The notes beneath the pieces were generated by a model. It was given only the letters and a program-made list of their open reading frames with translations. It was not told where the DNA came from and did not search any database. A stretch of DNA of 64,000 bases. Origin: Mycobacterium sp. NBC_00419 (GTDB lineage Bacteria > Actinomycetota > Actinomycetes > Mycobacteriales > Mycobacteriaceae). Below are positions 10,378-35,303 of this stretch, piece by piece. Position numbers and translations under genes: made by a program. The stretch covers positions 1,302,001 to 1,366,000 of the forward strand of contig NZ_CP107931.1 in the NCBI RefSeq assembly GCF_036023875.1, in the 5' to 3' direction. Within the stretch, counting starts at the first letter, position 1; every line of letters starts with the position of its first letter.

Positions 10378-10392
10378 AACCATACGTCCTGA

Positions 10393-10408: not shown

Positions 10409-10416
10409 CAGTTGGT

Positions 10417-11773: not shown

Positions 11774-11782
11774 CGCTGAACG

Positions 11783-13134: not shown

Positions 13135-13200
13135 CACCCTGCGCATCGACGCCGCGGTGGCAACGTATCCGTTGTAAACCACCCCGTACTGTGCTGACGG

Positions 13201-13220
13201 GTGCCAGAATGCCTCGCGTC
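13201..13220 (+). promoter_or_regulatory. Conserved leader box of the acyltransferase genes, copy 1
   Basis: The core CAGAATGCCTCG lies about 42 bases before the acyltransferase start. The same core occurs before the acyltransferases at 19923 and 33111, and each has an A[AG]CCAC 21-22 bases upstream (here near 13177). The shape is that of a shared promoter; the sigma factor is not known. Confidence 0.5.
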
Positions 13221-13234
13221 TAGAACGTGTTCCA
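13221..13234. promoter_or_regulatory. KstR/TetR-type palindrome before acyltransferase 1
   Basis: TAGAACGTGTTCCA fits TnnAACnnGTTnnA. It lies between the conserved leader box and the GTG start at 13248, 14 bases upstream of the start. The other two copies of this leader lack the palindrome. Confidence 0.45.
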
Positions 13235-13247
13235 CTTCCAGGATCGG

Positions 13248-15440: not shown

Positions 15441-15444
15441 CACT

Positions 15445-17533
15445 GTGCGCCAGGCCAATGGCATGAACTCTGCTGAAGGAGTTGAGGATCGGACCGCGCA
15501 GCGGTCGAGGTTCCGCCCCGATATCGAGGGCCTGCGCGCGGTCGCGGTGCTCGGTGTGGTGTTGTTCCACGCCTCGGTGCCCGGCATCGGTGGCGGCTAC
15601 ATCGGGGTCGACGTCTTCTTCGTCATCTCCGGTTTCCTGATCACCGGACTGCTGTGGCGCGAAGCCGCCGGCACCGGCACGGTCAAACTGCGCGCGTTCT
15701 ACGGGGCACGGGCCCGGCGGCTGCTGCCCGCCTCGGCGTTCGTCGGCGTCATCACCATGGTCGCCTCGGTACTGCTGCTGCCACCGCTACGGGTGCCCAC
15801 AGTCCTCTACGACGGCATCGCCAGCGCCCTCTACGTCGGCAACTACTGGTTCATCCTAGACAACGTCAACTACTTCTCCGACCTGCTGACACCCTCGCCG
15901 TTCCTGCACTACTGGTCACTCAGCGTCGAAGAACAGTACTATCTGGTCTGGGCGCCCCTGGTGTTGGGCACCGCCTGGGTCATCCGCGCCATCCACCGGC
16001 GGCGCAACACCACACCCGCCACCGCCTCACGGCGCCCGTTCCTGGTAGTCCTCGGCCTGGTCGGCGCCGCATCCTTCGCCCTGTCGCTGGTCATCACCTA
16101 CGTGATTCCCGCCGCGGCGTTCTTCTCCCTGCCCACCCGCGCCTGGCAGCTGGCCGCCGGCGGCCTGCTCGCCCTGACCGCCGCTGAATGGCAACGCCTT
16201 TCACCACGCGCGGCCGTGGTCCTCGGATGGACCGGGCTGGCGATGATCGTGGTCGCCTGCATCTGGTACACCCCGACCACCCCGTTCCCGGGAACCGCCG
16301 CACTGCTACCCACCCTCGGCGCCGTGCTGGTCATCGGCGCCGGTTGCGCCACCCCCACCCAGGGCTGCGGCCAACTACTGGGGACCAGCCCGATGCGGGC
16401 GATCGGGCGGATCTCCTACTCCTGGTACCTGTGGCACTGGCCGGTACTGGTACTCGCACCCGCCCTGCTGGGACACCCGCTGGGACTCGGTGAACGCCTG
16501 GCCGCGGCTCTGCTCTCAGCCGGGCTGGCCTGGCTGACCCTGCGCTACCTGGAAAACCCGCTGCGCTTCAACCCCAAGATCCGCGACTCACCCTGGCGCA
16601 GCCTGGCATTGGGCGCAGTGGCCACCCTGGTCGCGGTCTGCGTCGGACTGGGACTGTTCACAGCCGTCCCCGCCGCGATCGGACCCGGCGCACCCGCACA
16701 ACAAATCGCACTCAACGTTGCAGCCGTGCCCGCCAACGCCGGCCCCGCCGCCTACACCACCGCCGTCGAACAAGCCTTCACCCAAACCCAAACCGCACTG
16801 GCCGCCGCCCTACACACCACAGCCGTACCCGCCAACCTCACCCCACCACTGGATAACCTGGCCGCCGAACAGGGTGACTACACCTACGGCGGATGTGTGC
16901 TGACCCCGTACCAGAGCGGTCTGCCCACCTGCGCGATGGGCGATACCGCATCACCGACCCGGGTGGCCCTCGTCGGCGACTCGCACGCCGCCATGTGGAC
17001 CCCGGCCCTCAAAGAGATTGCCAACCAACGACACTGGCGACTCGAGCTGATGGCCAAGGAAGCCTGCCCGATACTGGACATCCATGTCGACGGCCACTTC
17101 CGCCGCTTGATCGAGAGTCTTCAGCACTGCGAGCAGTGGCGCGCCGAGGTCATGGCCCGGTTGAAAGCCGAACGCCCCCAACTCGTCGTCGTCAGTGTCT
17201 GGCGCGGCTACGGAATCGACGAGACGATGACGGGCTTCAAGGGCTATGACGCCGCCTGGATCGAGAGCATGGCCCGGCTGGTGAAAGACCTACGCGGCAC
17301 CGGTGCACAGGTATTGGTGCTGGGCCCCATCCCCGCTCCGCACGCCAACGTGCCGATCTGCATATCCGGACACCTCGACGACGCAACAGCCTGCGCACTG
17401 ACCCGATCCAAAGCCGTCGACCAATCCGGCATCGCCGCCGAAACCGCCGCCACCACAGCCAACGGCGGACAGTACGCCGATCTCACCGACCTGTTCTGCA
17501 CCGCCGAACGCTGCCCCGTCATCGTCGGCAACA
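15445..17533 (+). repeat. Mosaic direct duplication, left copy (partner 33117-35200)
   Basis: Bases 15445-16854, 16939-17043 and 17248-17533 are almost the same as 33117-34526, 34611-34715 and 34914-35200, with an offset of about 17.67 kb. The segments between these blocks are strongly diverged. Both copies lie on the plus strand. Confidence 0.85.
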
Positions 17534-17634
17534 GCTTGGTCTATCTCGACGTGAGCCACCTGACATTGCAGTACTCCCGGGTGCTGACGCCGGCCATGGC
17601 GGCGTTGACTGGCCGGGCGATCAACGGTGGCTAG
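15445..17634 (+). CDS. OafA/SGNH-type membrane acyltransferase 2
   Basis: 729 residues from the GTG at 15445, four bases after the previous stop, with AAGGA 7 bases upstream; an in-frame GTG at 15421 would overlap the previous gene. Same architecture as its neighbours: acyltransferase-3 domain (FRPDIEGLRAVAVLGVVLFHA) then SGNH domain with GDSHAAMW and DVSHLT. It is nearly identical in DNA to the gene at 33111 over the first 1.4 kb and in two later blocks, but unrelated in three patches (16855-16935, 17044-17247, 17534-17634). It is the second gene of the 13248-19801 transcription unit. Donor and acceptor are not known; acetylation of a GPL deoxysugar is the best guess. Confidence 0.88.
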   Translation: MRQANGMNSAEGVEDRTAQRSRFRPDIEGLRAVAVLGVVLFHASVPGIGGGYIGVDVFFVISGFLITGLLWREAAGTGTVKLRAFYGARARRLLPASAFVGVITMVASVLLLPPLRVPTVLYDGIASALYVGNYWFILDNVNYFSDLLTPSPFLHYWSLSVEEQYYLVWAPLVLGTAWVIRAIHRRRNTTPATASRRPFLVVLGLVGAASFALSLVITYVIPAAAFFSLPTRAWQLAAGGLLALTAAEWQRLSPRAAVVLGWTGLAMIVVACIWYTPTTPFPGTAALLPTLGAVLVIGAGCATPTQGCGQLLGTSPMRAIGRISYSWYLWHWPVLVLAPALLGHPLGLGERLAAALLSAGLAWLTLRYLENPLRFNPKIRDSPWRSLALGAVATLVAVCVGLGLFTAVPAAIGPGAPAQQIALNVAAVPANAGPAAYTTAVEQAFTQTQTALAAALHTTAVPANLTPPLDNLAAEQGDYTYGGCVLTPYQSGLPTCAMGDTASPTRVALVGDSHAAMWTPALKEIANQRHWRLELMAKEACPILDIHVDGHFRRLIESLQHCEQWRAEVMARLKAERPQLVVVSVWRGYGIDETMTGFKGYDAAWIESMARLVKDLRGTGAQVLVLGPIPAPHANVPICISGHLDDATACALTRSKAVDQSGIAAETAATTANGGQYADLTDLFCTAERCPVIVGNSLVYLDVSHLTLQYSRVLTPAMAALTGRAINGG

Positions 17635-19801
17635 TCGCGGTGTTAGCCCGGCCGAAGCAGTGCACGGGCAACACTCGGACCAGAAACAATTCCGCCCGGA
17701 TATCGAGGGCCTGCGGGCTGTCGCCGTGCTGGCCGTTGTGCTGTTTCATGCCGAGGTTCCCGGGCTGGGTGGCGGCTACGTCGGCGTCGACGTCTTCTTC
17801 GTCATCTCCGGGTTCCTGATCACCGGCCTGCTGTGGCGAGAGGTGGGGACATCCGGCACCGTTGGGCTGAGCCGCTTCTACGGGGCGCGGGCCCGCCGTC
17901 TGCTCCCTGCATCGGCCGTGGTCGGCGTTGCCACGATGATCGCCAGCGTTGTCCTCTTGCCGCCGTTACAGATTCCGGCCATCGCCGCTGACGGCATCGC
18001 CAGCGCCCTCTACGTCAGCAACTACTGGTTCATCATGCAGGGCGTCGATTACTCCGCACCATTCTTGCCGCCGTCGCCGTTCCAGCAGTTCTGGTCGTTG
18101 GGTGTCGAAGAGCAGTTCTATCTGGTGTGGCCGCCGCTAATTATCCTGACGGCGTGGGGAATTCGGCGCCTGAGTCGACGTAAGGCAGGCCGTACGCCGT
18201 CGCAACGTCCGTATCTGTTGGTCTTGGCGCTGGTCGCCGCCATCTCGTTCGCCCTGTCCCTGGCGGTGTGTCATTGGGCGCCCTTTGTGGCGTTCTTCTC
18301 CTTGCCCACGCGCGCCTGGCAGTTGGCCGTCGGCGGTCTCATCGCCCTCACCGCCGGTCAGTGGCGACGGCTGCCGCCACGAATTGCGGCGTTGGCCGGA
18401 TGTGCTGGTTTGGGTTCAATCATTCTGGCCTGCAATCTATTCAGTCCAGCGACCCTGTATCCAGGGACGGCCGCGCTGCTGCCGACACTAGGCACCGCAC
18501 TGGTCATCGGCGCCGGCTGCGCGATACCGAGGCGAGGATGTGGCCGGCTTCTGGGCTTGGCGCCGATGCGCGCAATCGGTCGGATCTCATACTCGTGGTA
18601 CCTCTGGCACTGGCCGATACTGCTGCTGGCCCCCGTGGCGCTGGGTCATCCGCTGGGGCTGGCCGCCCGGCTGTCCGCCGCGCTGCTCTCCGCCGGACTG
18701 GCAGTCGTGACGTGGCGTTTCGTCGAGAGCCCGCTGCGTTTTGCACCTCGGATACGAGATTCTCCCCGGCGCAGTCTGGTACTCGGGGGTGTGGCCACCG
18801 CAATTGCGGTAGCTGTGTGTGTGGCGGTCGTGCTCGTGGTACCGAAGCCAGTCGGTACCGGCGCACCGGCCGTGGCGCTGCGAATCACCACGATGCCAGC
18901 CGCCGCCTCGGACACTTCGACGGCCGACGTGGCAGTCCAGCACGCATTCACCCAAGTGCAGGCTGCAGTCCAGGCATCGGCTGACCTCACCGCTGTTCCA
19001 TCGAACCTTGAACCGCCGCTGGCGGAGGCGGCAGCCGAAGACAAGGCCAGCCACCTCGACGGCTGTCTGCGCCTGGCTTTCAGTCGCGGCCAGCTACCTG
19101 ACTGCGTGACTGGTGATACCGCCTCGAAGACCACGGTGGCTCTGGTTGGCGACTCACACGCGGCGATGTGGCATCCGGCATTCCAGCAGGTTGCCTCAGA
19201 ACGGCAGTGGCGGTTGGAGTTTGTGGGTATGGCGGGCTGTCCGTTGATAGACGTGCCCGTCACCAACCCCCAACTTCACCGCGAGTACACCGAATGTGAC
19301 GACTGGCGCAGCCAAGCGATGGCCCGGTTGCAGGAAACCCATCCCCGGCTGGTCGTGGTGAGCATGTGGAGGGGCTACGGATCGGGCAACTTCCTCTCGA
19401 GTACGCCGGCCTACGGCCCAGCGTGGCTCGCCAGCCTCACCCGCCTCGTGCAGCAGCTGCGCGCGAACGGTGCGCAGGTGCTGGTTCTGGGGCCGATCCC
19501 GGATCCACAATCGGTCGTGCCGATCTGCCTGTCCTCGCACCTCGATGACGCGACAGCATGCGCGCCGTCACGCTCGAGCGCGGTCAATCACGCGGGCATC
19601 TCCCGTGAGGCTGCCGCAACCCAGTCCGGCGGCGGCTACTACTCGGACCTCACAAACCTGTTCTGTACCAACAGTCGCTGCCCGGTCATCATCGGCAACG
19701 TCTTGGCCTACTTCGACTGGAATCACATGACAGTCGAATACTCCCGAACGTTGGCACCAGTCATGGCGGCACTTGCTGACCGATCCCTGGCGAACACATG
19801 A
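17627..19801 (+). CDS. OafA/SGNH-type membrane acyltransferase 3
   Basis: 724 residues from the GTG at 17627, overlapping the previous gene by 8 bases, so coupled to it; a GTG at 17639 is an alternative. Acyltransferase-3 domain FRPDIEGLRAVAVLAVVLFHA, about ten membrane segments, then SGNH domain with GDSHAAMW and DWNHMT. Its central SGNH patch (HREYTECDDW) belongs to the second patch type, shared with acyltransferases 4 and 5. DNA identity to its neighbours is clearly lower than between copies 2 and 5, so this is an older duplicate. Confidence 0.87.
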   Translation: MASRGVSPAEAVHGQHSDQKQFRPDIEGLRAVAVLAVVLFHAEVPGLGGGYVGVDVFFVISGFLITGLLWREVGTSGTVGLSRFYGARARRLLPASAVVGVATMIASVVLLPPLQIPAIAADGIASALYVSNYWFIMQGVDYSAPFLPPSPFQQFWSLGVEEQFYLVWPPLIILTAWGIRRLSRRKAGRTPSQRPYLLVLALVAAISFALSLAVCHWAPFVAFFSLPTRAWQLAVGGLIALTAGQWRRLPPRIAALAGCAGLGSIILACNLFSPATLYPGTAALLPTLGTALVIGAGCAIPRRGCGRLLGLAPMRAIGRISYSWYLWHWPILLLAPVALGHPLGLAARLSAALLSAGLAVVTWRFVESPLRFAPRIRDSPRRSLVLGGVATAIAVAVCVAVVLVVPKPVGTGAPAVALRITTMPAAASDTSTADVAVQHAFTQVQAAVQASADLTAVPSNLEPPLAEAAAEDKASHLDGCLRLAFSRGQLPDCVTGDTASKTTVALVGDSHAAMWHPAFQQVASERQWRLEFVGMAGCPLIDVPVTNPQLHREYTECDDWRSQAMARLQETHPRLVVVSMWRGYGSGNFLSSTPAYGPAWLASLTRLVQQLRANGAQVLVLGPIPDPQSVVPICLSSHLDDATACAPSRSSAVNHAGISREAAATQSGGGYYSDLTNLFCTNSRCPVIIGNVLAYFDWNHMTVEYSRTLAPVMAALADRSLANT

Positions 19802-19882
19802 CATACGTCGCGCTTAGCCAAGTAACCCGACCCATGACTGATCCGGATCTCGAAAGCCACACTAATTAACGTGCCCGAATGT

Positions 19883-19899
19883 AAGAATGCCTCGACTCG
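19883..19899 (+). promoter_or_regulatory. Conserved leader box of the acyltransferase genes, copy 2
   Basis: AAGAATGCCTCGACTCG is identical over 17 bases to the box at 33063-33079 and lies 39 bases before the GTG at 19923. AGCCAC stands 22 bases further upstream. It implies that acyltransferase 4 has its own promoter despite following three co-directional paralogues. Confidence 0.5.
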
Positions 19900-19922
19900 C
19901 GGCCGCTTCTTCTATCAAGTAG

Positions 19923-22109
19923 GTGAACTTGCGCCAAGCCGACAGCGTTAGCCCTGCCGGCGACCTGCACACGCAGGGCTTGAGCGATTCCGGATTCCGC
20001 CCCGACATCGAGGGCTTGCGAGCCGTCGCCGTCGCCGCGGTAGTTCTGTTTCACGCGCAGATCCCCGGCATTGGCGGCGGTTACGTCGGAGTCGACGTCT
20101 TTTTCGTCATCTCCGGCTTTTTGATCACCCGGATTCTGTGGCGCGAAGCCCACACCTCGGGCATGGTCCGGCTGGCCAACTTCTATGGCGCCCGCGCCCG
20201 CCGGTTGCTGCCCGCCTCTGCCTTCGTCGGCATCGTCACCATGGTCCTTGCGGCGTTTCTATTACCCCCGCTACACGCCCGAACCGTCCTCACCGACGGC
20301 ATCTACAGCGCCCTCTATGTGAGCAACTATCGCTTCGCATTCCAAGACGTCGACTACCTCGCATCCAACGCGCCGCCCTCGCCTTTCCAGCACTACTGGT
20401 CGTTGGGAGTCGAGGAGCAGTTCTATCTGATCTGGCCGGCGCTCATCCTGGGTACCGCATGGGCCATCCGGGCAATCCGCCGCAGCAACAGGACCGCGGC
20501 TACTGCCTCGAAGCGTCCCTATCTCATCGTGCTAACGCTGCTCGCGGTGGCGTCATTCGCCTTGTCGCTCGCGGCGACCTACTGGGCACCGCCGGTGGCA
20601 TTCTTCTCTCTGCCCACGCGGGCCTGGCAGCTCGCCGTGGGCGGACTGGTGGCTCTCACTGCAACCCAATGGCAGCGGCTCTCAGATCAGGTCCTCGCAC
20701 TCACCGGATGGACGGGACTGGGCATGATCGTCCTGGCCTGCATCTGGCTCGGCCCGACCACCCACTATCCGGGCACCGCGGCGCTGCTACCGACCCTCGG
20801 TGCGGCGCTCGTGATCGGCGCCGGCTGCGGACTACCCACCCGAGGCTGCGGCAGTGTCCTGGGACTGGCACCGATGCGTGCGATCGGGCGAATCTCCTAC
20901 TCGTTGTACCTGTGGCACTGGCCGGTTCTTCTGATGGCGCTGTGGGCAATCGCGCCGGTCACCGGACACACCCTGTTGTTGGGCTTGGCCGGCATCGCAC
21001 TCTCGGTCGGGCTGGCCGTGCTCACCATGCGGTTCATCGAGAACCCGCTGCGGTTCGCCGCACCGATCCGCGACTCTGCCGGACGCAGCCTTGCATTGGG
21101 TGCCGGCGTCACCGCGGCGGCGGTCGCAGTGGGCTTCGCACTTCACATTCCCGACCCGGTCGGTCTCGGCACTCCGGGCCGACCGCTGGCAGTGTCTGCT
21201 AAGCCCGTCCCAGCGGGCTCAACCATCGAGGATTACGACCAAGCAGTGCGACAGGCGTCCGCCCAAGTAGAGGCTGCAGTAGCGGCCTCGGCCGGTCTCC
21301 GAGCTGTCCCGTCGAACCTCAACCCACCGCTGGCAGACCTGACGTCGCACAGCGGCGATGCCTCCAGTGGGTGCATTCGCACGTTCTTCGAAGTAGCACA
21401 ACCCGAATGCGCCTCCGGTGACACGGCATCGGGGACCACGGTCGCCCTGGTGGGCGACTCCAATGCAGCGATGTGGGACCCTGCTTTCCACCAGCTGGCC
21501 GGACAGCGCAGGTGGCGGCTGGAAACCATGACCAAAGTCAGCTGCCCGATGCTCGATTTGCCCACCATCAACCCGGTGCTGGGCCGGGACTACACCGAGT
21601 GCGGGCAGTGGCGCGACGGGGTCATCGCACGACTGCGGGCAGAGCGTCCAAAGCTGGTCGTGCTCAGCGTGATGCGACGCTACGGTGCCCGATATGGCTG
21701 GGGTGTCGGCTTCACGTCGTACGAAACGGCGTGGACCGACGGCATGACACGGCTTGTGCATCAGCTGCGAGACACCGGCGCGCAGGTTCTGGTCCTCGGG
21801 CCGATTCCGGATCCGCAGTCCGCGGTACCGGACTGCCTCACGCTGCACCTCGACGACGCAACAGCATGCTCGCCGTCAACCCTCAAGGCGGTCAATCGAG
21901 ACGGCATCAAGGCCGAGGCCGCTGCCACCAAAGCCAGCGACGGACAGTACGCCGACCTCACAGACCTCTTCTGCACCAAGGAGACGTGCCCGGCCATCGT
22001 CGGCAATACGTTGGTCTACCTTGACCAAAGCCACCTGACATACCAATACTCCCGAATACTGGCACCCGTCATCGGAGCGTTAGCTGATCGCGCGCTCGCA
22101 CAACGGTGA
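19923..22109 (+). CDS. OafA/SGNH-type membrane acyltransferase 4, with altered GDS block
   Basis: 728 residues from the GTG at 19923 (MNLRQADSVSPAG). Acyltransferase-3 domain FRPDIEGLRAVAVAAVVLFHA, then SGNH domain. The catalytic Ser block reads GDSNAAMW, while all four paralogues have GDSHAAMW; DQSHLT keeps Asp-x-x-His. The region after the WYLWHW-type motif is also changed (YSLYLWHWPVLLMALWAIAPV), suggesting a different acyl or acceptor pocket. It is separated from acyltransferase 3 by 121 bases holding its own leader box. The stop overlaps a GTG (GTGA), but the next gene more likely starts at 22175. Confidence 0.87.
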   Translation: MNLRQADSVSPAGDLHTQGLSDSGFRPDIEGLRAVAVAAVVLFHAQIPGIGGGYVGVDVFFVISGFLITRILWREAHTSGMVRLANFYGARARRLLPASAFVGIVTMVLAAFLLPPLHARTVLTDGIYSALYVSNYRFAFQDVDYLASNAPPSPFQHYWSLGVEEQFYLIWPALILGTAWAIRAIRRSNRTAATASKRPYLIVLTLLAVASFALSLAATYWAPPVAFFSLPTRAWQLAVGGLVALTATQWQRLSDQVLALTGWTGLGMIVLACIWLGPTTHYPGTAALLPTLGAALVIGAGCGLPTRGCGSVLGLAPMRAIGRISYSLYLWHWPVLLMALWAIAPVTGHTLLLGLAGIALSVGLAVLTMRFIENPLRFAAPIRDSAGRSLALGAGVTAAAVAVGFALHIPDPVGLGTPGRPLAVSAKPVPAGSTIEDYDQAVRQASAQVEAAVAASAGLRAVPSNLNPPLADLTSHSGDASSGCIRTFFEVAQPECASGDTASGTTVALVGDSNAAMWDPAFHQLAGQRRWRLETMTKVSCPMLDLPTINPVLGRDYTECGQWRDGVIARLRAERPKLVVLSVMRRYGARYGWGVGFTSYETAWTDGMTRLVHQLRDTGAQVLVLGPIPDPQSAVPDCLTLHLDDATACSPSTLKAVNRDGIKAEAAATKASDGQYADLTDLFCTKETCPAIVGNTLVYLDQSHLTYQYSRILAPVIGALADRALAQR

Positions 22110-22174
22110 CGGCCTGGACGCCATCGCAATCAGACCATCGGGGTTACCCCCCACGAGACGACCGGAGGTCGGCT

Positions 22175-23248
22175 TTGTCCATACCCGTGCTGATTACTGG
22201 CGGGGCCGGATTCATCGGCTCAGCACTCGCGCGCCGTCTCGTCGCAGCCGGCTACGAGGTCGCCGTGATGGACATCCTGCATCCGCAGGTGCACGGCGAA
22301 CACGCGGCGATCGATCTTCCGGCCTCGGTGCGCTTGTTCACCGGGGATGTGACTCACGAGCCCGACGTCGATGCCGTGCTCCGGTTGTTCCGGCCGTCCC
22401 AGATCGTGCACCTGGCGGCAGAGACCGGAACGGCGCAATCGCTGTCCGAAGCCAGCCGCCACGGTTCGGTCAACGTGGTGGGGACGACCCAGCTCGTCGA
22501 CGCGTTGAGCCGCGCGGGCCACGTGCCCGATCAACTTGTGCTGGCATCGTCGCGGGCCGTCTACGGCGAGGGCGCCTGGCAGTCCGGGTCGGAGATCTTC
22601 TACCCGGCTCCTCGCAGCCACGCCCAACTGGAGGCCGGCATCTGGGACCCGCAGGGCCCGACGGGCGAACCGGCAGTCCCGTTGGCCAGCAGCGCGGCCC
22701 GGACGCAACCCCGGCCCACCAACATCTACGCCGCCACCAAGCTCGCGCAGGAGCACATCCTCGGGGCCTGGGCGTCTGCCCATGACACCAACCTCAGCGT
22801 GCTGCGTCTGCAGAACGTCTACGGGCCGGGCCAGTCGCTGACGAATTCGTACACCGGAATCGTCGCGCTGTTCGCGCGGCTGTCGCTGCAGAAGCAGGGA
22901 TTAGAGGTCTATGAGGACGGCCGAATTCTGCGTGACTTCGTCTACATCGACGATGTCGTCGAAGCGCTGTTCGCCGCGATCGCTCAGCCGGCGTCCCCCG
23001 CGCGCTGCGTCGATGTCGGCTCGGGCGTACCGACGACCATCCATGAGCTGGCACAGGCGCTTGCCGGGATCTGCGGCGCGCCTGACCCGGTAGTGGTCGG
23101 GAAGTTCCGCGATGGTGACGTGCGGGCGGCGAGGTGCGATGTGGAGGCGACGACGCAGCACCTCGACTGGCATCCGAAATGGTCGCTCGAGGACGGTATG
23201 CGGGCGCTGCTCGACTGGATCGGAAGTCAGCCGCACCAGACCGTTTAG
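22175..23248 (+). CDS. NAD-dependent nucleotide-sugar epimerase/dehydratase (extended SDR)
   Basis: 357 residues from the TTG at 22175, chosen because GGAGG lies 6 bases upstream and the Rossmann motif TGGAGFIGSALARR follows directly; a GTG at 22106 overlapping the previous stop is possible. The active-site pattern is SSRAVYGEG and YAATK (Tyr-x-x-x-Lys). The family includes NDP-glucose 4-epimerases and 4,6-dehydratases, and GPL loci are known to carry such epimerases for deoxysugar donors. It precedes the ABC exporter genes on the same strand. The exact reaction is not known. Confidence 0.82.
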   Translation: MSIPVLITGGAGFIGSALARRLVAAGYEVAVMDILHPQVHGEHAAIDLPASVRLFTGDVTHEPDVDAVLRLFRPSQIVHLAAETGTAQSLSEASRHGSVNVVGTTQLVDALSRAGHVPDQLVLASSRAVYGEGAWQSGSEIFYPAPRSHAQLEAGIWDPQGPTGEPAVPLASSAARTQPRPTNIYAATKLAQEHILGAWASAHDTNLSVLRLQNVYGPGQSLTNSYTGIVALFARLSLQKQGLEVYEDGRILRDFVYIDDVVEALFAAIAQPASPARCVDVGSGVPTTIHELAQALAGICGAPDPVVVGKFRDGDVRAARCDVEATTQHLDWHPKWSLEDGMRALLDWIGSQPHQTV

Positions 23249-23370
23249 CCCGACAATCCCCCGCATCCATCAGCGAGTCAGAAACAGAAGATAACGATGA
23301 GATCCACGCCGACGGCGAAGAAGCCGCAACTGCGCCCGAACCGACTGCGCCAACGCTATGGTGTGCATTC

Positions 23371-27129: not shown

Positions 27130-27303
27130 TGAGAAGGACGCTTACCCTTCCGCTTCGATGCGGAGTTGAGGCTCCAAGCCCACGAAAAACCGTCCCTCCG
27201 AAGGCCCTCAGCCTCTCATCGAAAGCCGTCAGGAATTGCCCGCGACGTCAGAAAGATACACATCGTTTGTTTCCAGGACAAGACAATTGCGAACCCTGAT
27301 CGC

Positions 27304-28296: not shown

Positions 28297-28354
28297 CTGT
28301 GCTCTCTCGTTTCAGGTAGCCGGTTACGGTGGTTGACGCGCGCTTACCGCTCGA

Positions 28355-29737
28355 TTATCGACCGATTCCCTTGTACGCGAAGCCCGCCGCACGTACCGCC
28401 GCGGGATCGAAGCTGTTACGTCCGTCGAGGAACACACAGCCGGCGGCGGTGAGGTCCGCGAGGCGTACCAGTGGGATCTGGTGAAACTCTCGATGCCCAG
28501 CCAGTACCACCAAGGCATCGGCATCCTTGACCGCAGATTCGATGTCCGCCGTCAGGGGAATCGTGGTCACCGTGTGCGCTTCCTCTTCGGGCACCCACGG
28601 ATCATGAACGGAGAGCTGACATCCGGAGTCCTCGAGGAACTCCAAGACGTACTTGGTGGGCGTCAGGCGGCAGTCGCCGGTGTTGTTCTTGAAGGCGATA
28701 CCCAGCACCGCGATCTTGCAGTTCTCGATCGACTTACCCTGCTCGGCGAGCAGCTGGGTCAACAGTCCGTAGGTGTAACCCGGCATCGTGTCGTTGACAG
28801 TCCTCGAGGTCCGCGGAATCGACAGTTCCAGCCCCAGCGTTTCGCCCAGGTGGTTGACGAACCACGGATCCTTGGTGAGGCAGTAGCCGCCCACACCCAT
28901 GCTCGGACGCAGGATATTGGCCAGGCCACCGCCTTTGGGCATGGTGTTGGCGGCCTCGATCACTTGCAGGGCGTCCATGCCGAGACGGTCGCAGACCTTG
29001 GCCAACTCGTTGGCCAGTGCGACGTTGAGGTCGACCCACAGGTTGTCGGCGAGCTTGACCATCTCGGCGGTTCGGGGATCGTCGACCAGGACGGACTCGA
29101 CACCCAGGGCGTGGCGCCACAGCGTGGAACACGCTCGTGCGCTGCGCTCGTCGACCGCGCCGACCACGACGGGGATGGAGGTCAGCTCGCGAATCGCCTG
29201 GCCCTCGGCCAATCGCTCCGGGCAGAACGCCAACCCGAAGTCGACACCGGCCTGCAGACCCGAGGCTTCCTCCAGGATCGGGCGAACCAGCTTTTCGGTT
29301 GTGTCCGGCGGGACCGTGCTCTTGAGGATGACCAGATGGCCGGCCCGCAGATGCTGGCCGACTGCTTGGGCGGCGGCCTTGATGTCGTCGACGATGGGTT
29401 CGAAGTCCGGACCGAGGGGGGTACCGACCGTCACGATGATGAAGTCGTTCTCGGCGATGGCGGCGAAGTCGGTGGTCGCCTTCAACTGGCCGACACGCAC
29501 GCTGTTGGACACCAACTCGTCGAGCCCGGGTTCGGGCACATGAGACCTGCCCTGGTTGATCTCGTCAACGACATTCTGGCGAACGTCGATCCCGGTGACC
29601 GGCCAGCCGCGGTCGGCCAGCACGGCGCCGATCACCGTGCCGATGTAGCCGAATCCGACGACGGCGATGCCCGACTGCATGCCGCGGACCAGAAGATCGA
29701 TCTCGGCGTCGGTCCGTCCGAACACGCCTTCAGCCAT
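28355..29737 (-). CDS. UDP-glucose/UDP-ManNAc dehydrogenase family, nucleotide-sugar 6-dehydrogenase
   Basis: 460 residues from the ATG at 29737, chosen for its AGGAG box; a start at 29776 is possible. The NAD motif is AVVGFGYIGTVIG. The active-site Cys lies in GVGGYCLTKDPWF, and the central helix has the conserved AEMVKLADN. The enzyme oxidises the C6 hydroxyl of a UDP-sugar to a carboxylate in two steps. With the downstream SDR it should supply a uronic acid or a pentose donor. M. avium serovar GPLs with glucuronic acid and M. marinum LOS with xylose are known precedents. Confidence 0.88.
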   Translation of the reverse strand: MAEGVFGRTDAEIDLLVRGMQSGIAVVGFGYIGTVIGAVLADRGWPVTGIDVRQNVVDEINQGRSHVPEPGLDELVSNSVRVGQLKATTDFAAIAENDFIIVTVGTPLGPDFEPIVDDIKAAAQAVGQHLRAGHLVILKSTVPPDTTEKLVRPILEEASGLQAGVDFGLAFCPERLAEGQAIRELTSIPVVVGAVDERSARACSTLWRHALGVESVLVDDPRTAEMVKLADNLWVDLNVALANELAKVCDRLGMDALQVIEAANTMPKGGGLANILRPSMGVGGYCLTKDPWFVNHLGETLGLELSIPRTSRTVNDTMPGYTYGLLTQLLAEQGKSIENCKIAVLGIAFKNNTGDCRLTPTKYVLEFLEDSGCQLSVHDPWVPEEEAHTVTTIPLTADIESAVKDADALVVLAGHREFHQIPLVRLADLTAAGCVFLDGRNSFDPAAVRAAGFAYKGIGR

Positions 29738-29917
29738 TGCGCTCCTGAGCCCTTCAGTTCCCCGTGCGTGTTCCATGCGAGGGCGCGGGGGGTCGCATCC
29801 CCGACTAACCCGGTCGGCAGCTTAGTAGATGAGCCGCGGTGTCGATTTGAAATCGGAAAGTTTGCTCGACTGCACGACGACGCTGATGATTCGGATGTCG
29901 CGACGTCGCCATTACGG

Positions 29918-31180
29918 CTACCTCGCGGATCGGGCGAAGTCTTCGATCAGGCCGGCCGCGGCCGCCGCGCTGTCGGCGGGCGTGGTGATGCGGGGAGCGA
30001 GTTCTCGGGCCCGGGCGCGGTAGCGCGGATCCAGGATCCGGCGCAGACCCTTGACCAACGATTTCTCCGTGGTGGTGGCAAACCGGTGCCCGGCACCTAC
30101 CTTCAGCCGTCTGAGCTGAGCGGCGAAGAACGGTTGATCCGGCAGCGTCCACAGCACGAGCTGCGGCACCCCGGCCCGTAGGCACGCGGCCAGGGTTCCC
30201 GCGCCGCCGTGGTGGACGACGGCGCGGCAGGTGGGAAAGATCGTCGCATAGTTGACTTGGCCCACGACCTTGACGTGGTCGAACTGCGCGACGTTGCTGA
30301 AATCGGTCCCGCCGGCGCCGATCAGCGCCCGCTCACCGAGCTGGGCGCTGGCCGCGGCAATCATGGCAACCGTCTCCTCGGGCGATCCGATCGGCACGCT
30401 GCCGAACCCGAAGAAGATCGGCGGGGTGCCCGCGGCGATCCAGGCGGCGACCTCCTCGTCGGCGGGCGTCGGTGATTGCATCGCGAGCGCCCCGACGAAC
30501 GGCCGCAGGCCGCCCGACTTCGCCCATTCGGCCCCGAGCCCCGGGAAACACAGCTCGTCGTAGGCCTGGATCTCCAGCGAGCCGCGCTCGGCGATCCGCT
30601 GCGGAGCCGGCCCTGGCGCGTCCGGCAAGCCGAGCTCCCGGCGCTGGGCGTCCTCCCCCTCCCTGGTGCCGCGCCAGGCCAGCCAGTCGTTGATCTTCAT
30701 TCCCGCCCGGCTCAGCACCGCAGGCGCGAACGGCAACAGCTGACCGTGTGCACGGACGGGGAAGTAATGCAATGTCACCAACGGGATGTCGAACCGCTCG
30801 GCCACGTTGGCGGCGGGCTGTTCGAAGATCAGCCCGGTCAGCAGGGCGTCAGCGCCGTGCGCCACCGCCGCCAATCCCGTCGTCATCTCCTGCCAGCACC
30901 GGGCCGCGAACGCTTCGGTCTCCCGGCTCATCTGACTCAGTTGCCGGACCTTCCACGGCGTGCGGGAGTAAAGCGTGAAGTAGCGGCGCTGCAGTTCCAG
31001 AATCGGGGCCGAATCAAGGCCGTAGGCGACTGCCTCGAGTCCGGCGTCCTGCGCGAAGCCGACCAGGTTCGGCGGTACCGCCATCAGCACGTCGTGCCCG
31101 CGGTGCTTCAACTCCCTGCCCACGACGACCGCCGGCTCGATGTCGCCGCGGCCCCCGTAGCTGGCGAGGACGAACTTCAT
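29918..31180 (-). CDS. GT1-family glycosyltransferase (GPL Gtf-like), copy 3
   Basis: 420 residues, MKFVLASYGGRGDIEPAVVVG. Donor site HHGGAGTLAACLRAGVPQLVLWTLPDQPF, then RRLKVG. The AACLRAGVPQ and WTLPDQ stretches are shared with the copy at 40436, and both are divergent from a GMC oxidoreductase, so the two belong to a duplicated gene pair. A conserved 19-base element lies 49 bases upstream of the start. The sugar dehydrogenase gene follows downstream after 180 bases. Confidence 0.86.
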   Translation of the reverse strand: MKFVLASYGGRGDIEPAVVVGRELKHRGHDVLMAVPPNLVGFAQDAGLEAVAYGLDSAPILELQRRYFTLYSRTPWKVRQLSQMSRETEAFAARCWQEMTTGLAAVAHGADALLTGLIFEQPAANVAERFDIPLVTLHYFPVRAHGQLLPFAPAVLSRAGMKINDWLAWRGTREGEDAQRRELGLPDAPGPAPQRIAERGSLEIQAYDELCFPGLGAEWAKSGGLRPFVGALAMQSPTPADEEVAAWIAAGTPPIFFGFGSVPIGSPEETVAMIAAASAQLGERALIGAGGTDFSNVAQFDHVKVVGQVNYATIFPTCRAVVHHGGAGTLAACLRAGVPQLVLWTLPDQPFFAAQLRRLKVGAGHRFATTTEKSLVKGLRRILDPRYRARARELAPRITTPADSAAAAAGLIEDFARSAR

Positions 31181-31228
31181 CGCGGCGGTGGCCTTTCAGT
31201 CGGGCGGTGCGCAGACGGCGCCTGGAGC

Positions 31229-31247
31229 ACCGGCCATTATTACCGGT
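31229..31247. promoter_or_regulatory. Conserved 19-bp element in the GT1/GMC divergent gap, left copy
   Basis: ACCGGCCATTATTACCGGT matches ACCGGTCATTATCACTGGT at 41757-41775 in 16 of 19 positions. It has ACCGG/CCGGT inverted arms. Read towards the glycosyltransferase, its centre gives an AATAAT/GATAAT hexamer 48 bases from the start codon. It could be the glycosyltransferase promoter, an operator, or both. Confidence 0.45.
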
Positions 31248-31288
31248 TGGGCGACCTTCGAAAGAGGGTTCGGGACATCGAGGTCGGC

Positions 31289-31297
31289 TGATACGAT
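31289..31297 (+). promoter_or_regulatory. Extended -10 (TGA-TACGAT) for GMC oxidoreductase 1
   Basis: TGATACGAT lies 58 bases before the TTG start at 31355. The second GMC gene has TGTTACGAT at nearly the same distance. The form TGN-TANNNT is the mycobacterial extended -10 element. Confidence 0.4.
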
Positions 31298-31354
31298 CGC
31301 GGATCGCTGCGCCCGGGCCACGCTCTGGGCATCATCCGCTGAGGAGCTTTCATT

Positions 31355-32995
31355 TTGGCCGACGGCGATCTGGACGCGCGCGAAGCGGAGCGCATCCTGT
31401 GGGACGTGATCGTCGTGGGCACCGGCATGGGCGGCGGCACGCTGGGCTACGCCCTGGCGCGCGCCGGCCGCCGCGTGCTGTTCGTGGAGAAGGGCCGCTC
31501 CACCCTGCCCGGGGCCCCCGGAGTCATTCGCGCGGCCATGCCGGAACTCGCCGAGCCGCAGGCGTCGCGATCGGCGGACACCTACTTCGATGCGCTCGCG
31601 CGCGGCGGCCGGTCCACCGACGAAGTCGAGGACATCAGCGCGCGCTCGCCGAAACGGTTCGTCCCGTTCGTCGGCAGCGGAACGGGCGGATCCTCGGCGC
31701 TGTACGGCATGGTCTGCGAACGCTTCTTCGCCCGCGACTTCACCCCACGGCAGAACTTCGCCGACCCCGGCGAGTCCACGGTGCCCGACGCCTGGCCGGT
31801 CAGCTACGACGAGATGGCGCCCTGGTACGCCCAAGCCGAGAAGCTGCTCGGTGTTCGCGGCCAGCCCGATCCCCTGCGACCCGAATCCGCCGCAGTGGGT
31901 TTGCCTGCGGCGCCGCCGTTTTCGGCCGACAACCAGCCGCTCGTGGACTACTTGCAAGGCCGCGGACTGCACCCCTACCACTTGCCGATGGCCTGCGATT
32001 ACACCGACGGGTGCACCACCTGTCAGACCTATCTGTGCCCGCAGAATTGCAAGCGCGACTCGGCCCGCAACGGTGTCGAGCCGGCCATCACCGAGTACGG
32101 TGCCGCACTGCTGGATCAGTGCCGGGTGGTCCGACTGGACGCCGACCGCTCGGCGGTGCGGCAGGTGATCTGCGAGCACCGCGGCGCAACTCTGGCGCTG
32201 CAGGCCAAGGTGGTGGTGCTGGCCGCCGGCGCCCTGGCCACACCGATGCTGTTGCTCAAATCCCGTTCCGGTGACTGGCCGGCCGGGCTGGCCAACGGCT
32301 CGGATTATGTGGGGCGCAACCTGATGCGCCATCTGCTCGACCCCATCGAGATCTGGCCGCAGCGCGACAGCAAGATCACCGGTGCCAACAAGGAGATCGG
32401 GCTCAACGACTTCTACTACTGGGAAGGCCAGAAGTACGGCACCGTCCAGTCCTTCGGCGCCATACCTCCGATGGAGTGGCTGGCCAACCGCCCCGGGTGG
32501 AAGGGCAAGGGCATGCGCCTGATGAACCCCGCGGTGCGTCTGGTCTACGAACGGTTCTTCACCGGCGGTCTGATCCTGGCCGCGATGACCGAGGATCTGC
32601 CTTACCTGGACAACCGTGTGCTGCCGTCGGATCGGCCCGGCACCGACGGCCGTCAGCGGATGCGGATGCACTATCGGCTGCACCCCAGCGAGATCGCCCG
32701 TCGGGACGTCTTTCTGCGCCAGCTCAAAGAGGTGTTCACACCGTTCCGGACCCTGCCGCTAGGCAGCGGCAAGGACAACACGAACCTCGGACATGTCTGC
32801 GGCACATGCCGATTCGGTACCGACCCGGCGACCAGCGTGCTCGACGCGCACAACCGGGCTCACGAAGTGGAGAACCTCTACGTCGTGGACACGTCGTTCT
32901 TCCCCTCGAGCGCCGGGCTGAACCCGAGCCTGACGGTGGCGGCCAATGCGTTGCGGGTGGCCGAGCACGTGAGCCTGGCGCACTTCGCCAATTGA
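31355..32995 (+). CDS. GMC-family FAD oxidoreductase 1
   Basis: 546 residues from the TTG at 31355 with GAGGAG 8 bases upstream. The FAD motif is VVGTGMGGGTLGYALARAG with acidic FVEKG. Near the C-terminus are GHVCGTCRFG and GLNPSLTVAANALR, typical of GMC oxidoreductases, which oxidise alcohols such as sugar or sterol hydroxyls. Residues 214-232 hold five cysteines spaced C-x5-C-x2-C-x4-C-x3-C, all kept in the copy at 41958. It may oxidise a sugar hydroxyl of the glycolipid to a ketone; the substrate is unknown. It is divergent from a GT1 gene, and this two-gene pair is duplicated at 40436-43607. Confidence 0.85.
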   Translation: MADGDLDAREAERILWDVIVVGTGMGGGTLGYALARAGRRVLFVEKGRSTLPGAPGVIRAAMPELAEPQASRSADTYFDALARGGRSTDEVEDISARSPKRFVPFVGSGTGGSSALYGMVCERFFARDFTPRQNFADPGESTVPDAWPVSYDEMAPWYAQAEKLLGVRGQPDPLRPESAAVGLPAAPPFSADNQPLVDYLQGRGLHPYHLPMACDYTDGCTTCQTYLCPQNCKRDSARNGVEPAITEYGAALLDQCRVVRLDADRSAVRQVICEHRGATLALQAKVVVLAAGALATPMLLLKSRSGDWPAGLANGSDYVGRNLMRHLLDPIEIWPQRDSKITGANKEIGLNDFYYWEGQKYGTVQSFGAIPPMEWLANRPGWKGKGMRLMNPAVRLVYERFFTGGLILAAMTEDLPYLDNRVLPSDRPGTDGRQRMRMHYRLHPSEIARRDVFLRQLKEVFTPFRTLPLGSGKDNTNLGHVCGTCRFGTDPATSVLDAHNRAHEVENLYVVDTSFFPSSAGLNPSLTVAANALRVAEHVSLAHFAN

Positions 32996-33062
32996 ATTAA
33001 AGATCTTGGCGCCCGGGACACCACGCGTAGTCCAAAACCACATTTTTGCCAGCACTGAGTGC

Positions 33063-33079
33063 AAGAATGCCTCGACTCG
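33063..33079 (+). promoter_or_regulatory. Conserved leader box of the acyltransferase genes, copy 3
   Basis: AAGAATGCCTCGACTCG is identical to the box at 19883-19899 and lies 47 bases before the GTG at 33111. AACCAC stands 21 bases upstream. Confidence 0.5.
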
Positions 33080-33110
33080 ATGGTCGGGTCGCACTAACGA
33101 GATCCGATAG

Positions 33111-35303
33111 GTGACTGTGCGCCAGGCCAATGGCATGAACTCTGCTGAAGGAGTTGAGGATCGGACCGCGCAGCGGTCAACGTTCCGCCCCGATATCGAG
33201 GGCCTGCGCGCGGTCGCGGTGCTCGGTGTGGTGTTGTTCCACGCCTCGGTGCCCGGCATCGGTGGCGGCTACATCGGGGTCGACGTCTTCTTCGTCATCT
33301 CCGGTTTCCTGATCACCGGACTGCTGTGGCGCGAAGCCGCCGGCACCGGCACGGTCAAACTACGCGCGTTCTACGGGGCACGGGCCCGACGACTACTGCC
33401 CGCCTCGGCGTTCGTCGGCGTCATCACCATGGTCGCCTCGGTACTGCTGCTGCCACCACTACGGGTGCCCACAGTCCTCTACGACGGCATCGCCAGCGCC
33501 CTCTACGTCGGCAACTACTGGTTCATCCTCGACAACGTCAACTACTTCTCCGACCTGCTGACCCCCTCGCCGTTCCTGCACTACTGGTCGCTGAGCGTCG
33601 AAGAACAGTTCTATCTGGTCTGGGCGCCCCTGGTGTTGGGCACCGCCTGGGTCATCCGCGCCATCCACCGGCGGCGCAACACCGCACCCGCCACCGCCTC
33701 ACGGCGCCCGTTCCTGGTAGTCCTCGGCCTGGTCGGCGCCGCATCCTTCGCCCTGTCGCTGGTCATCACCTACGTGATTCCCGCCGCGGCGTTCTTCTCC
33801 CTGCCCACCCGCGCCTGGCAGCTGGCCGCCGGCGGCCTGCTCGCCCTGACCGCCGCTGAATGGCAACGCCTTTCACCACGCGCGGCCGTGGTCCTCGGAT
33901 GGACCGGGCTGGCGATGATCGTGGTCGCCTGCATCTGGTACACCCCGACCACCCCGTTCCCGGGAACCGCCGCACTGCTACCCACCCTCGGCGCCGTGCT
34001 GGTCATCGGCGCCGGATGCGCCACCCCCACCCAGGGCTGCGGCCAACTACTAGCGACCAGCCCGATGCGGGCGATCGGCCGGATCTCCTACTCCTGGTAC
34101 CTGTGGCACTGGCCGGTACTGGTACTCGCACCCGCCCTGCTGGGACACCCGCTGGGACTCGGTGAACGCCTGGCCGCGGCTCTGCTCTCAGCCGGGCTGG
34201 CCTGGCTGACCCTGCGCTACCTGGAAAACCCGCTGCGCTTCAACCCCAAAATCCGCGACTCACCCTGGCGCAGCCTGGCATTGGGCGCAGTAGCCACCCT
34301 GATCGCGGTCTGCGTCGGACTGGGACTGTTCACAGCCGTCCCCGCCGCGATCGGACCCGGCGCACCCGCACAACAAATCGCACTCACCATCCCAGCCGTG
34401 CCCGCCAACGCCGACCCCGCCGCCTACACCACCGCCGTCGAACAAGCCTTCACCCAAACCCAAACCGCACTGGCCGCCGCCCTACACACCACAGCCGTAC
34501 CCGCCAACCTCACCCCACCACTGGACAACGCAGCGGCCGAGGAGAAAGCCGTTTATCGCAATGGCTGCATGCTCGATTTCTTCCAGGTCACCCAACCGGA
34601 CTGCTTTGCAGGCGATACCGCATCACCGACCCGGGTGGCCCTCGTCGGCGACTCGCACGCCGCCATGTGGACCCCGGCCCTCAAAGAGATTGCCAACCAA
34701 CAACACTGGCGACTCGAGACACTCGCAAAAGCCGGCTGCCCAGTATTGGATCTACCGATCAGCAGCCCGCTCCTCAATAGGGAGTACACCGAGTGCGAGC
34801 AGTGGCGCGGCGAAGTCGTCACTCGACTGCGCGCCGAACACAATCAGCTGATCGTTATCAGCATGTGGCGCGGCTACGGTGTCGAAGATTGGCCATCGGG
34901 CTTCAGAACCTATGACACCGCCTGGATCGAGAGCATGGCCCGGCTGGTGAAAGACCTACGCGGCAGCGGCGCACAGGTATTGGTGCTGGGCCCCATCCCC
35001 GCTCCGCACGCCAACGTGCCGATCTGCATATCCGGACACCTCGACGACGCAACAGCCTGCGCACTGACCCGATCCAAAGCCGTCGACCAATCCGGCATCG
35101 CCGCCGAAACCGCCGCCACCACCGCCAACGGCGGACAGTACGCCGATCTCACCGACCTGTTCTGCACCGCCGAACGCTGCCCCGTCATCGTCGGCAACAC
35201 CCTGGTCTACTTCGACTGGAATCACGCAACCCCTGCATACACCCAAGTGTTGGCGCCGGCAATAGGGACGCTTGTCGATAGAGCGATCACACTAGGCGGA
35301 TAG
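33111..35303 (+). CDS. OafA/SGNH-type membrane acyltransferase 5 (mosaic of copies 2 and 3-like)
   Basis: 730 residues from the GTG at 33111. The acyltransferase-3 half is almost identical to acyltransferase 2 at 15445. The SGNH half has GDSHAAMW and DWNHAT, but three patches differ from copy 2: around residues 471-500 (YRNGCMLDFFQ), 535-600 (LLNREYTECEQW) and the C-terminus (YFDWNHATPAYTQ). The last two resemble acyltransferase 3 instead. It lies after GMC oxidoreductase 1 and away from the other four paralogues. Same membrane and same core reaction are expected, with a different acceptor specificity. Confidence 0.88.
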   Translation: MTVRQANGMNSAEGVEDRTAQRSTFRPDIEGLRAVAVLGVVLFHASVPGIGGGYIGVDVFFVISGFLITGLLWREAAGTGTVKLRAFYGARARRLLPASAFVGVITMVASVLLLPPLRVPTVLYDGIASALYVGNYWFILDNVNYFSDLLTPSPFLHYWSLSVEEQFYLVWAPLVLGTAWVIRAIHRRRNTAPATASRRPFLVVLGLVGAASFALSLVITYVIPAAAFFSLPTRAWQLAAGGLLALTAAEWQRLSPRAAVVLGWTGLAMIVVACIWYTPTTPFPGTAALLPTLGAVLVIGAGCATPTQGCGQLLATSPMRAIGRISYSWYLWHWPVLVLAPALLGHPLGLGERLAAALLSAGLAWLTLRYLENPLRFNPKIRDSPWRSLALGAVATLIAVCVGLGLFTAVPAAIGPGAPAQQIALTIPAVPANADPAAYTTAVEQAFTQTQTALAAALHTTAVPANLTPPLDNAAAEEKAVYRNGCMLDFFQVTQPDCFAGDTASPTRVALVGDSHAAMWTPALKEIANQQHWRLETLAKAGCPVLDLPISSPLLNREYTECEQWRGEVVTRLRAEHNQLIVISMWRGYGVEDWPSGFRTYDTAWIESMARLVKDLRGSGAQVLVLGPIPAPHANVPICISGHLDDATACALTRSKAVDQSGIAAETAATTANGGQYADLTDLFCTAERCPVIVGNTLVYFDWNHATPAYTQVLAPAIGTLVDRAITLGG
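33117..35200 (+). repeat. Mosaic direct duplication, right copy (partner 15445-17533)
   Basis: Blocks 33117-34526, 34611-34715 and 34914-35200 are almost identical to the left copy, and the segments between them are not. The two codons missing in the middle patch change the offset from 17672 to 17666. Confidence 0.85.

What the first reader, a model, noticed from the sequence alone, without database searches (positions are those of the whole stretch)
15445..35303. Block-mosaic acyltransferase pair: identical backbone, swapped specificity patches
Acyltransferases 2 and 5 are almost identical in DNA over the membrane domain and in two SGNH blocks, yet strongly diverged in three sharply bounded patches: residues about 471-498, 534-601 and the C-terminus. 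In copy 5 the middle and last patches resemble acyltransferase 3, while in copy 2 the middle patch resembles acyltransferase 1. This looks like gene conversion or domain shuffling that changes acceptor specificity while keeping the membrane motor.
Basis: seen in the sequence. Interest (0 to 1): 0.75.

Follow-up and report, generated by a model that had tools for sequence, protein, structure and literature searches.

The report
Acyltransferase overwritten except three patches
In a mycobacterium, one surface-sugar acyltransferase gene seems to have been overwritten by a copy of a neighbouring one almost everywhere except three short stretches near its active site, which may decide the sugar it acts on and so mark where to look for specificity.

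Summary
AT2 (15421-17634) and AT5 (33111-35303) differ at 28 of 1779 backbone sites but at 171 of 405 sites in three patches of the extracytoplasmic SGNH domain (AT5 residues 473-500, 531-601, 697-end). Silent sites step likewise (pS 0.00-0.04 against 0.53-0.86), so this is recombination, not selection alone.

AT5 aside, AT2 is nearest to AT2 orthologues in all seven blocks. AT5's backbone is a copy of AT2; its patches belong to another lineage, best matched by genes at the same place (AT facing atf) in EPa45, M. sphagni and BK086, not by AT1 or AT3 (ranks 199 and 229 of 331). AU tests reject AT2+AT5 on patches (p 4e-33) and AT5 with its syntenic relatives on backbone (p 4e-9).

Best explanation: AT2 overwrote AT5 by gene conversion, and three patches were kept because they set acceptor specificity. 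The mosaic and its direction are well supported; the specificity role is inferred from the catalytic Asp/His in one patch and from OafB. A second pair (G071) shows a partly similar mosaic. Across the 32 genomes sampled the tendency is weak.

The parts
15421..17634 (+). AT2: AT3-SGNH acyltransferase, backbone donor
   Evidence: AT5 aside, nearest to AT2 orthologues in all seven blocks
16854..16938 (+). AT2 patch 1
   Evidence: boundaries from identical runs; 0.89 to the G284 and G098 orthologues
17030..17251 (+). AT2 patch 2
   Evidence: 0.88 to the G284 and G098 orthologues
17534..17634 (+). AT2 patch 3
   Evidence: 0.73-0.87 to 12 of 18 AT2 orthologues, 0.53-0.63 to the other 6
33111..35303 (+). 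AT5: AT3-SGNH acyltransferase, mosaic recipient
   Evidence: PF01757 and PF19040 above cut-off; mosaic
33111..34525 (+). AT5 overwritten membrane domain and linker
   Evidence: pS 0.04 to AT2
34526..34610 (+). AT5 retained patch 1 (residues 473-500), just upstream of the nucleophile block
34611..34701 (+). AT5 overwritten block I with GDSH (Ser515)
   Evidence: 91 identical bases to AT2; S515 invariant in 76 rows
34702..34917 (+). AT5 retained patch 2 (residues 531-601)
   Evidence: top three of 164 rows are genes at the AT5 place in G322, G184 and G136
34918..35199 (+). AT5 overwritten block III
   Evidence: 3 differences to AT2
35200..35303 (+). AT5 retained patch 3 (residue 697 to end) with Asp702-Trp-Asn-His705
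   Evidence: H705 invariant and D702 in at least 90% of 76 rows
35381..36550 (-). atf: AT3-only acyltransferase convergent to AT5, synteny marker
   Evidence: PF01757; same convergent pair in G136, G184, G322
13227..15440 (+). AT1, tandem paralogue
   Evidence: 0.65 identical to AT2 and AT5
17627..19801 (+). AT3, tandem paralogue
   Evidence: 0.59-0.61 identical to AT2 and AT5
19923..22109 (+). AT4, tandem paralogue
   Evidence: 0.61 identical to AT2 and AT5

Best explanation
AT5 is a separate member of this cluster, set at its own place beside atf. After the lineage split from Mycobacterium sp. M26, homologous recombination copied AT2 over AT5's membrane domain, linker and two SGNH core blocks, one way only, and left three stretches of AT5's own SGNH sequence. 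Those stretches were kept because they carry AT5's acceptor choice. Both enzymes then work alike: the AT3 membrane domain brings an acyl group from acyl-CoA across the membrane, the SGNH serine (Ser515) with Asp702 and His705 passes it to a sugar hydroxyl of the surface glycolipid made by this locus, and the three patches decide which hydroxyl. Shown: the mosaic, its recombinational nature, the direction (AT5's backbone is AT2's, AT2 is unmixed), and that the patches belong to another lineage. Inferred: gene conversion as the exact route, AT5 being the older gene in place, selection as the reason for retention, and acceptor specificity as the patches' role. The enzyme chemistry is taken from OafA/OafB.
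For: Silent-site steps at each boundary. AT5 aside, AT2 is nearest to AT2 orthologues in 7 of 7 blocks; AT5 is nearest to AT2 and then to those orthologues in its 4 backbone blocks only, and in patch 2 its top 3 of 164 rows are genes at the AT5 place. AT2-AT5 are 0.98 alike in DNA over the membrane domain, AT2-M26 0.86. Patch tree: AT2+AT5 rejected, p 4e-33; AT5 with the AT2 orthologues rejected, p 0.0016. Backbone tree (quick method): AT5 with 4 syntenic genes rejected, p 4e-9. A 17-row AT5-type clade was defined on backbone alone with AT5 left out (FastTree support 1.0); AT5's five nearest rows by path on patches belong to it or its sister. AT-atf pair at this place in G136, G184 and G322; AT with a short, weak atf remnant in G314. 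Against a pure heterology barrier: AT2 against AT5-type genes is 0.55-0.59 in DNA over the linker, which was overwritten, and 0.55-0.62 and 0.62-0.70 over patches 2 and 3, which were kept. G071's two neighbouring genes share membrane domain and linker (pS 0.06, 0.04) and residues 669-698 (0.00) but differ at 469-500, 549-668 and 699-713 (0.39-0.51). In OafB the SGNH extension limits acceptor choice (PMC7448272, passages).
Against: AT5's patches do not fall inside a supported AT5-type group. In the free trees the four syntenic rows group without AT5 (94/90) and 15 of the 17 AT5-type rows are starred without AT5 (98/88); AT5 with them is only not rejected (p 0.105, 0.404). Patch 1 is nearest to G148 (0.64), not to a syntenic gene; patch 3 is nearest to G314's syntenic gene but the next rows tie with unrelated ones. 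G284 and G098, the nearest relatives by this locus, have no AT5 or atf there, so retention with losses and horizontal gain are both open. In same-genome proxy pairs the heterology argument is less clean: linker 0.58-0.66, patch 2 0.54-0.62, patch 3 0.62-0.71. In G071 block I (501-530) is diverged (0.18, 0.36) and 531-548 and 714-726 are shared (0.08, 0.09), unlike AT2/AT5. The tendency across 32 genomes is weak: 15 of 5000 permutations reach it with all rows, 54 without AT5, 291 without AT5 and two G058 rows, 419 without AT5 and all G058 rows. No acceptor, product or 3D model was tested.
Confidence: 0.65

Rival explanations
1. Same overwriting, but the patches survived only because they were too unlike AT2 for recombination to cross them; no selection for specificity.
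For: Patches 1 and 2 have the lowest mean identity of the seven blocks in the family (0.42 and 0.53).
Against: The overwritten linker (family mean 0.55) is, by proxy of relatives, as unlike in DNA (0.55-0.59) as patch 2 and more unlike than patch 3; same-genome proxies are less clear, and the true earlier AT5 is not known.
Confidence: 0.2
2. A fresh duplicate of AT2 landed at this place and then took up three patches from an AT5-type gene, for instance of another strain by distributive conjugal transfer.
For: Mycobacterial conjugation can leave closely spaced mosaic tracts, down to about 0.05 kb (PMC3706393, passages). G284 and G098 have no AT5 at this place.
Against: The copy stands where AT5-type genes stand, facing atf, in three other species; three separate imports are needed.
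Confidence: 0.15
3. Recent duplication followed by positive selection on the patches, without recombination.
For: Patches are rich in amino-acid changes (pN 0.33-0.48).
Against: Silent sites jump from 0.04 or less to 0.53-0.86 at the boundaries, and the patches place with other rows than the backbone.
Confidence: 0.01
4. Patches were swapped in from AT3 (into AT5) and AT1 (into AT2).
For: AT5 and AT3 share FDWNH and REYTEC letters; AT1 is the nearest of AT1, AT3 and AT4 to AT2's patch 2 (0.55).
Against: AT1, AT4 and AT3 rank 199, 205 and 229 of 331 rows in likeness to AT5's patches; silent sites between AT5 and AT3 patches are at 0.58-0.80; AT2's patches match its orthologues.
Confidence: 0.01

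Closest known systems
OafA/OafB, Salmonella O-antigen acetyltransferases (AT3-SGNH)
   Same: AT3 membrane domain with fused SGNH domain; Ser and Asp-x-x-His triad; the SGNH domain does the last transfer, and in OafB its extension limits acceptor choice (PMC7448272 and PMC9833829, passages)
   Different: Sequence likeness of the SGNH part is very weak (6SE1 at E 1.4, below two unrelated chains); mycobacterial locus; no conversion between copies is mentioned in the passages I saw
SucT, mycobacterial acyltransferase (NCBIfam NF058601)
   Same: Match over nearly the full length of AT5
   Different: 242 bits against a cut-off of 1275, so not SucT by that test
RF1-RF2 gene conversion in bacteria (PMC4530459, abstract and outline)
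   Same: Paralogues of different specificity share a converted common domain
   Different: One domain there; here most of the gene, with three interleaved spared patches
TLR1/TLR6 gene conversion (PMC2077338, search listing and start of abstract only)
   Same: Conversion limits divergence of two paralogues
   Different: Mammalian receptors
Distributive conjugal transfer in Mycobacterium smegmatis (PMC3706393, passages)
   Same: Closely spaced mosaic tracts in mycobacteria
   Different: Between parental strains; not shown there between paralogues in the passages I saw

Membership tests
AT3-SGNH fused acyltransferases | PF01757 and PF19040 above gathering score in one protein | tested here: met
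   AT5: 87.1 and 124 bits against 31 and 27; both domains precomputed for P0002, which is AT2 of this genome; AT1, AT3, AT4 not scanned
AT3-SGNH fused acyltransferases | Catalytic Ser and Asp-x-x-His | tested here: met
   S515 and H705 invariant, D702 in at least 90% of 76 rows; a very weak 6SE1 alignment puts D702/H705 on OafB Asp618/His621
AT3-SGNH fused acyltransferases | Acyl transfer to a glycan | not testable with these tools
   needs biochemistry
SucT | Score above NF058601 cut-off | tested here: not met
   AT5 242.3 against 1275
Gene conversion between paralogues | Near-identical tracts with abrupt ends inside diverged genes | tested here: met
Gene conversion between paralogues | One-way copying: donor unmixed, recipient mixed | tested here: met
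   AT2 consistent in 7 of 7 blocks, AT5 not; reciprocal tree conflict
Gene conversion between paralogues | Recipient is an older gene in place | tested here: inconclusive
   genes at the same place in G136, G184, G322, G314, but not in G284 and G098; AT5 not inside a supported AT5-type group on patches
Concerted evolution with spared specificity sites | Recurs in independent lineages | tested here: inconclusive
   G071 pair in part; trend across 32 genomes weak
Distributive conjugal transfer | Donor strain tracts genome-wide | not testable with these tools
   no second strain of this species was met in the searches made

The most novel reading that the evidence does not exclude
The three patches form one specificity unit that purifying selection defends against ongoing gene conversion. 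Recombination keeps renewing the membrane motor and SGNH core among co-resident acyltransferases while the patches are passed down as a linked set, so genomes themselves mark which residues choose the sugar.
Probability: 0.33. Interest if true: 0.65.

Novelty: new variant of a known kind. Interest (0 to 1): 0.5.

Why it matters
How AT3-SGNH enzymes choose the sugar and the hydroxyl is largely open. AT2 and AT5 are a natural pair that share nearly all but about 130 residues, so a difference in product would tie specificity to three named stretches. The case is also a clear bacterial example of conversion that spares parts of a gene, and it warns that whole-gene trees of such paralogues mislead: by full length AT5 looks like a young copy of AT2, while its patches come from another lineage.

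Tried and rejected
Donors AT1, AT3 and AT4: rejected by rank and by silent sites. Selection without recombination: rejected by silent sites. A general law of backbone homogenisation: only a weak trend (5 of 2000 permutations in a first run; 15, 54, 291 and 419 of 5000 as rows are dropped). AT1 orthologues as a further case: not supported (holding them together on backbone, AU p 0.398). G301 trio as a further case: backbone support 89, unstarred; patches reject the trio at p 0.033; suggestive only. Patches as co-varying units: partial correlations between patches are 0.35-0.48 in 18 AT2 orthologues and 0.22-0.46 in 164 rows; between patches and the blocks beside them 0.13-0.41 and 0.13-0.25. 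The first are mostly higher but not in each comparison, the controls differ between the two kinds, and no significance test was made. Clumping of backbone differences: longest identical run 331 nt, reached in 140 of 5000 shuffles, so perhaps more than one episode. So no 3D map of the patches was made. Literature: listings of two searches (8 of 8 papers; 10 of 63) showed nothing on conversion or patch swapping in AT3-SGNH enzymes; only open-licence papers are held.

Limits of counts: the genus searches drew 98 and 396 genomes from a larger group; one search scored one or two candidates per genome; some searches listed only the best matches. The printed gene-order table was cut, so part of the genomes (G286, G024, G289 among them) could not be read there. 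Rows under 600 aa of open frame or under 700 bits were dropped before the 165-row set. A first motif filter dropped 46 of 160 rows and was replaced. The 331 rows include near-duplicates (the same gene from two sources, and P0001, which is AT5 itself). The patch tree left out three rows of the earlier set (G301_64378, G301_38795, G156_29670). The backbone tree used the quick method. Of the 32 genomes had two or more rows.
Full report
Setting. The window is part of a genome of one 5.6-Mb contig. The relatives found in named genomes are mostly mycobacteria, with some Nocardia, one Rhodococcus and one actinomycete bin, and same-genus genomes carry the same cluster, so the host is a Mycobacterium; the species is not known. 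The cluster holds glycosyltransferase-like genes, sugar epimerases, a UDP-sugar dehydrogenase, an ABC transporter, GFO/IDH/MocA oxidoreductases, a PE-PPE domain protein, an MmpL transporter and a weak match to wax ester synthase (not all genes were scanned), with polyketide synthase-like genes just beyond its end. It is most likely a surface glycolipid locus; the product is not known. Five genes encode AT3-SGNH acyltransferases: AT1-AT4 in tandem and AT5 about 11 kb beyond AT4 (domains scanned for AT5).

Observation. AT2 and AT5 differ at 28 of 1779 sites in the backbone and at 171 of 405 in three patches (sums). The boundaries are sharp. Silent-site divergence jumps from at most 0.04 to 0.53-0.86 and back. 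Selection on amino acids alone cannot do this; recombination can. The silent divergence of the N-terminal part (16/405) and of the SGNH blocks (2/97) does not differ (Fisher p 0.55), which fits one period of copying, though one identical run of 331 nt is longer than expected (140 of 5000 shuffles).

Direction and source. I gathered 165 family members and compared AT2 and AT5 with them block by block. AT5 aside, AT2 is nearest to AT2 orthologues (same tandem array in G284, G098 and others) in all seven blocks, patches included (0.77-0.89 to G284 and G098). AT5 is nearest to AT2, then to the same orthologues, in its four backbone blocks. In patch 2 its top three of 164 rows are G322, G184 and G136 (0.72-0.73; next 0.69). 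Those three genes stand where AT5 stands, facing an atf gene on the other strand. In patch 3 the best row is G314's gene at that place (0.73), and G184's ties for second with four other rows. In patch 1 the best is G148 (0.64), with G322 tied second (0.57) and G136 and G314 among rows at 0.54. In letters (21 rows shown) AT5 and the four syntenic genes share, exactly or nearly, EEK/EDK, GCM.DF, LAK.GCP..DL.I, REYTECEQWR, DWPSGF and YFDWNH, against EQ, GC...PY, MAKEAC, DETMTGF and LDVSHLTLQYSR or close variants in AT2 and its orthologues shown there.

Trees. On patches, AT2 with AT5 is rejected (p 4e-33), and AT5 with its four syntenic relatives is not (p 0.105), though in the free tree those four group without AT5 (94/90) and AT5 lies with them in a starred set of 17 rows. 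On backbone, AT5 with its syntenic relatives is rejected (p 4e-9), and AT2 with AT5 is starred. To avoid circularity I defined an AT5-type clade on backbone columns with AT5 left out: 17 of 302 rows, FastTree support 1.0. On patches AT5's nearest rows by path are P0012 (sister of that clade on backbone), P0031, P0025, P0035 and P0045 (in it); AT5 with the 17 is not rejected (p 0.404), and AT5 with the AT2 orthologues is (p 0.0016). But 15 of the 17 are starred together without AT5, and no starred set of up to half of the rows holds AT5. So the exact sister of AT5's patches remains open. AT1, AT4 and AT3 of the window rank 199, 205 and 229 of 331 rows in patch likeness.

How the patches survived. 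By proxy of relatives, the linker that was overwritten is as unlike AT2 in DNA (0.55-0.59) as patch 2 (0.55-0.62) and more unlike than patch 3 (0.62-0.70); patch 1 is the most unlike of all (0.46-0.48). In same-genome pairs the contrast is less clean (linker 0.58-0.66, patch 2 0.54-0.62, patch 3 0.62-0.71). Heterology alone therefore predicts poorly which parts were kept, but is not excluded. Function fits better. Patch 3 holds Asp702 and His705, nearly or fully invariant, which a very weak alignment sets on OafB Asp618 and His621 (numbers from PMC9833829). Patch 1 lies 15-42 residues before Ser515, at about the distance of the SGNH extension, which limits acceptor choice in OafB (PMC7448272). 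Patch 2 spans the stretch where SGNH blocks II and III would be expected (inferred from block order). No model could be made.

Recurrence. In G071 (contig length equal to that of a Mycobacterium sp. MFM001 record) two neighbouring genes share membrane domain and linker (pS 0.06, 0.04). They differ at 469-500 (0.43), at 501-514 and 515-530 (0.18, 0.36), are near-identical at 531-548 (0.08), differ at 549-601 and 602-668 (0.39, 0.51), are identical at 669-698 (0.00), differ at 699-713 (0.47), and are near-identical after that (0.09). The first and last divergent stretches begin within about five residues of those in AT2/AT5. The rest differs: block I and 602-668 are shared in AT2/AT5 but not in G071, and 531-548 and 714-726 the other way round. 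Looser cases share mainly the membrane domain (P0045/P0065) or mainly the patches (L030 against L034, L138 and L110). Across 32 genomes (22 with two or more rows), same-genome paralogues have slightly more alike backbones than expected from their patches: 15 of 5000 permutations with all rows, 54 without AT5, 291 and 419 when G058 rows are dropped too. So AT2/AT5 is an extreme case, and a general rule is not shown.

Open point. G284 and G098, the nearest relatives by this locus, have no AT5 or atf at this place. AT5 was either kept here and lost there, or brought in by transfer and then overwritten.

Verdict. A real and sharply defined recombination mosaic. The best reading is one-way overwriting of a separate acyltransferase by its neighbour with three patches near the active site retained. 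Precedents for conversion between paralogues of different specificity exist (RF1/RF2). I saw none for this enzyme family in the listings of two searches of an open-licence library.

Noticed in passing
L212:1954-8406 (-) and 8409-15269 (-), about 2-15 kb beyond the window end: Two long synthase genes: the first has ketoacyl synthase and three FabA-like stretches, the second KS, AT, four carrier domains, KR and DH, an arrangement like polyunsaturated fatty acid synthases (that likeness is recalled).
   Followed up: partly
G284:C9:1051643-1053673 (L141): The AT2 orthologue of Mycobacterium sp. M26 is one open frame of 677 aa that matches AT5 at 2-406 and 469-726, so about 60 residues of the linker seem to be missing.
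   Followed up: no
AT2 and its 18 orthologues in the matrices; letters of 13 of these rows: Patch 3 falls into two classes (LDVSHLTLQYSR-like and MDVSH.S.PY.R-like) that cut across membrane-domain likeness; G289 has patches 1 and 2 nearest to one class and patch 3 of the other.
   Followed up: partly
G093:C15:39436 and G136:C1:4723500: Two AT1-like genes 0.84-0.92 alike in DNA through patch 1 and then 0.73-0.75, a step near residue 500.
   Followed up: partly
G023 (L030) against G006 (L034), L138 and L110: Patches 0.88-0.89 alike but membrane domains only 0.73-0.77: the reverse of AT2/AT5.
   Followed up: no
window 31196-32683 (-): A 495-aa gene without Pfam or NCBIfam match at E 0.001 that has a relative in 30 of 30 genomes searched, most matches elsewhere with stops in the matched stretch.
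   Followed up: no
G009, G051, G071 and G097 loci: Several acyltransferase copies appear as partial or split matches, which suggests gene decay or frameshifts in these arrays.
   Followed up: no
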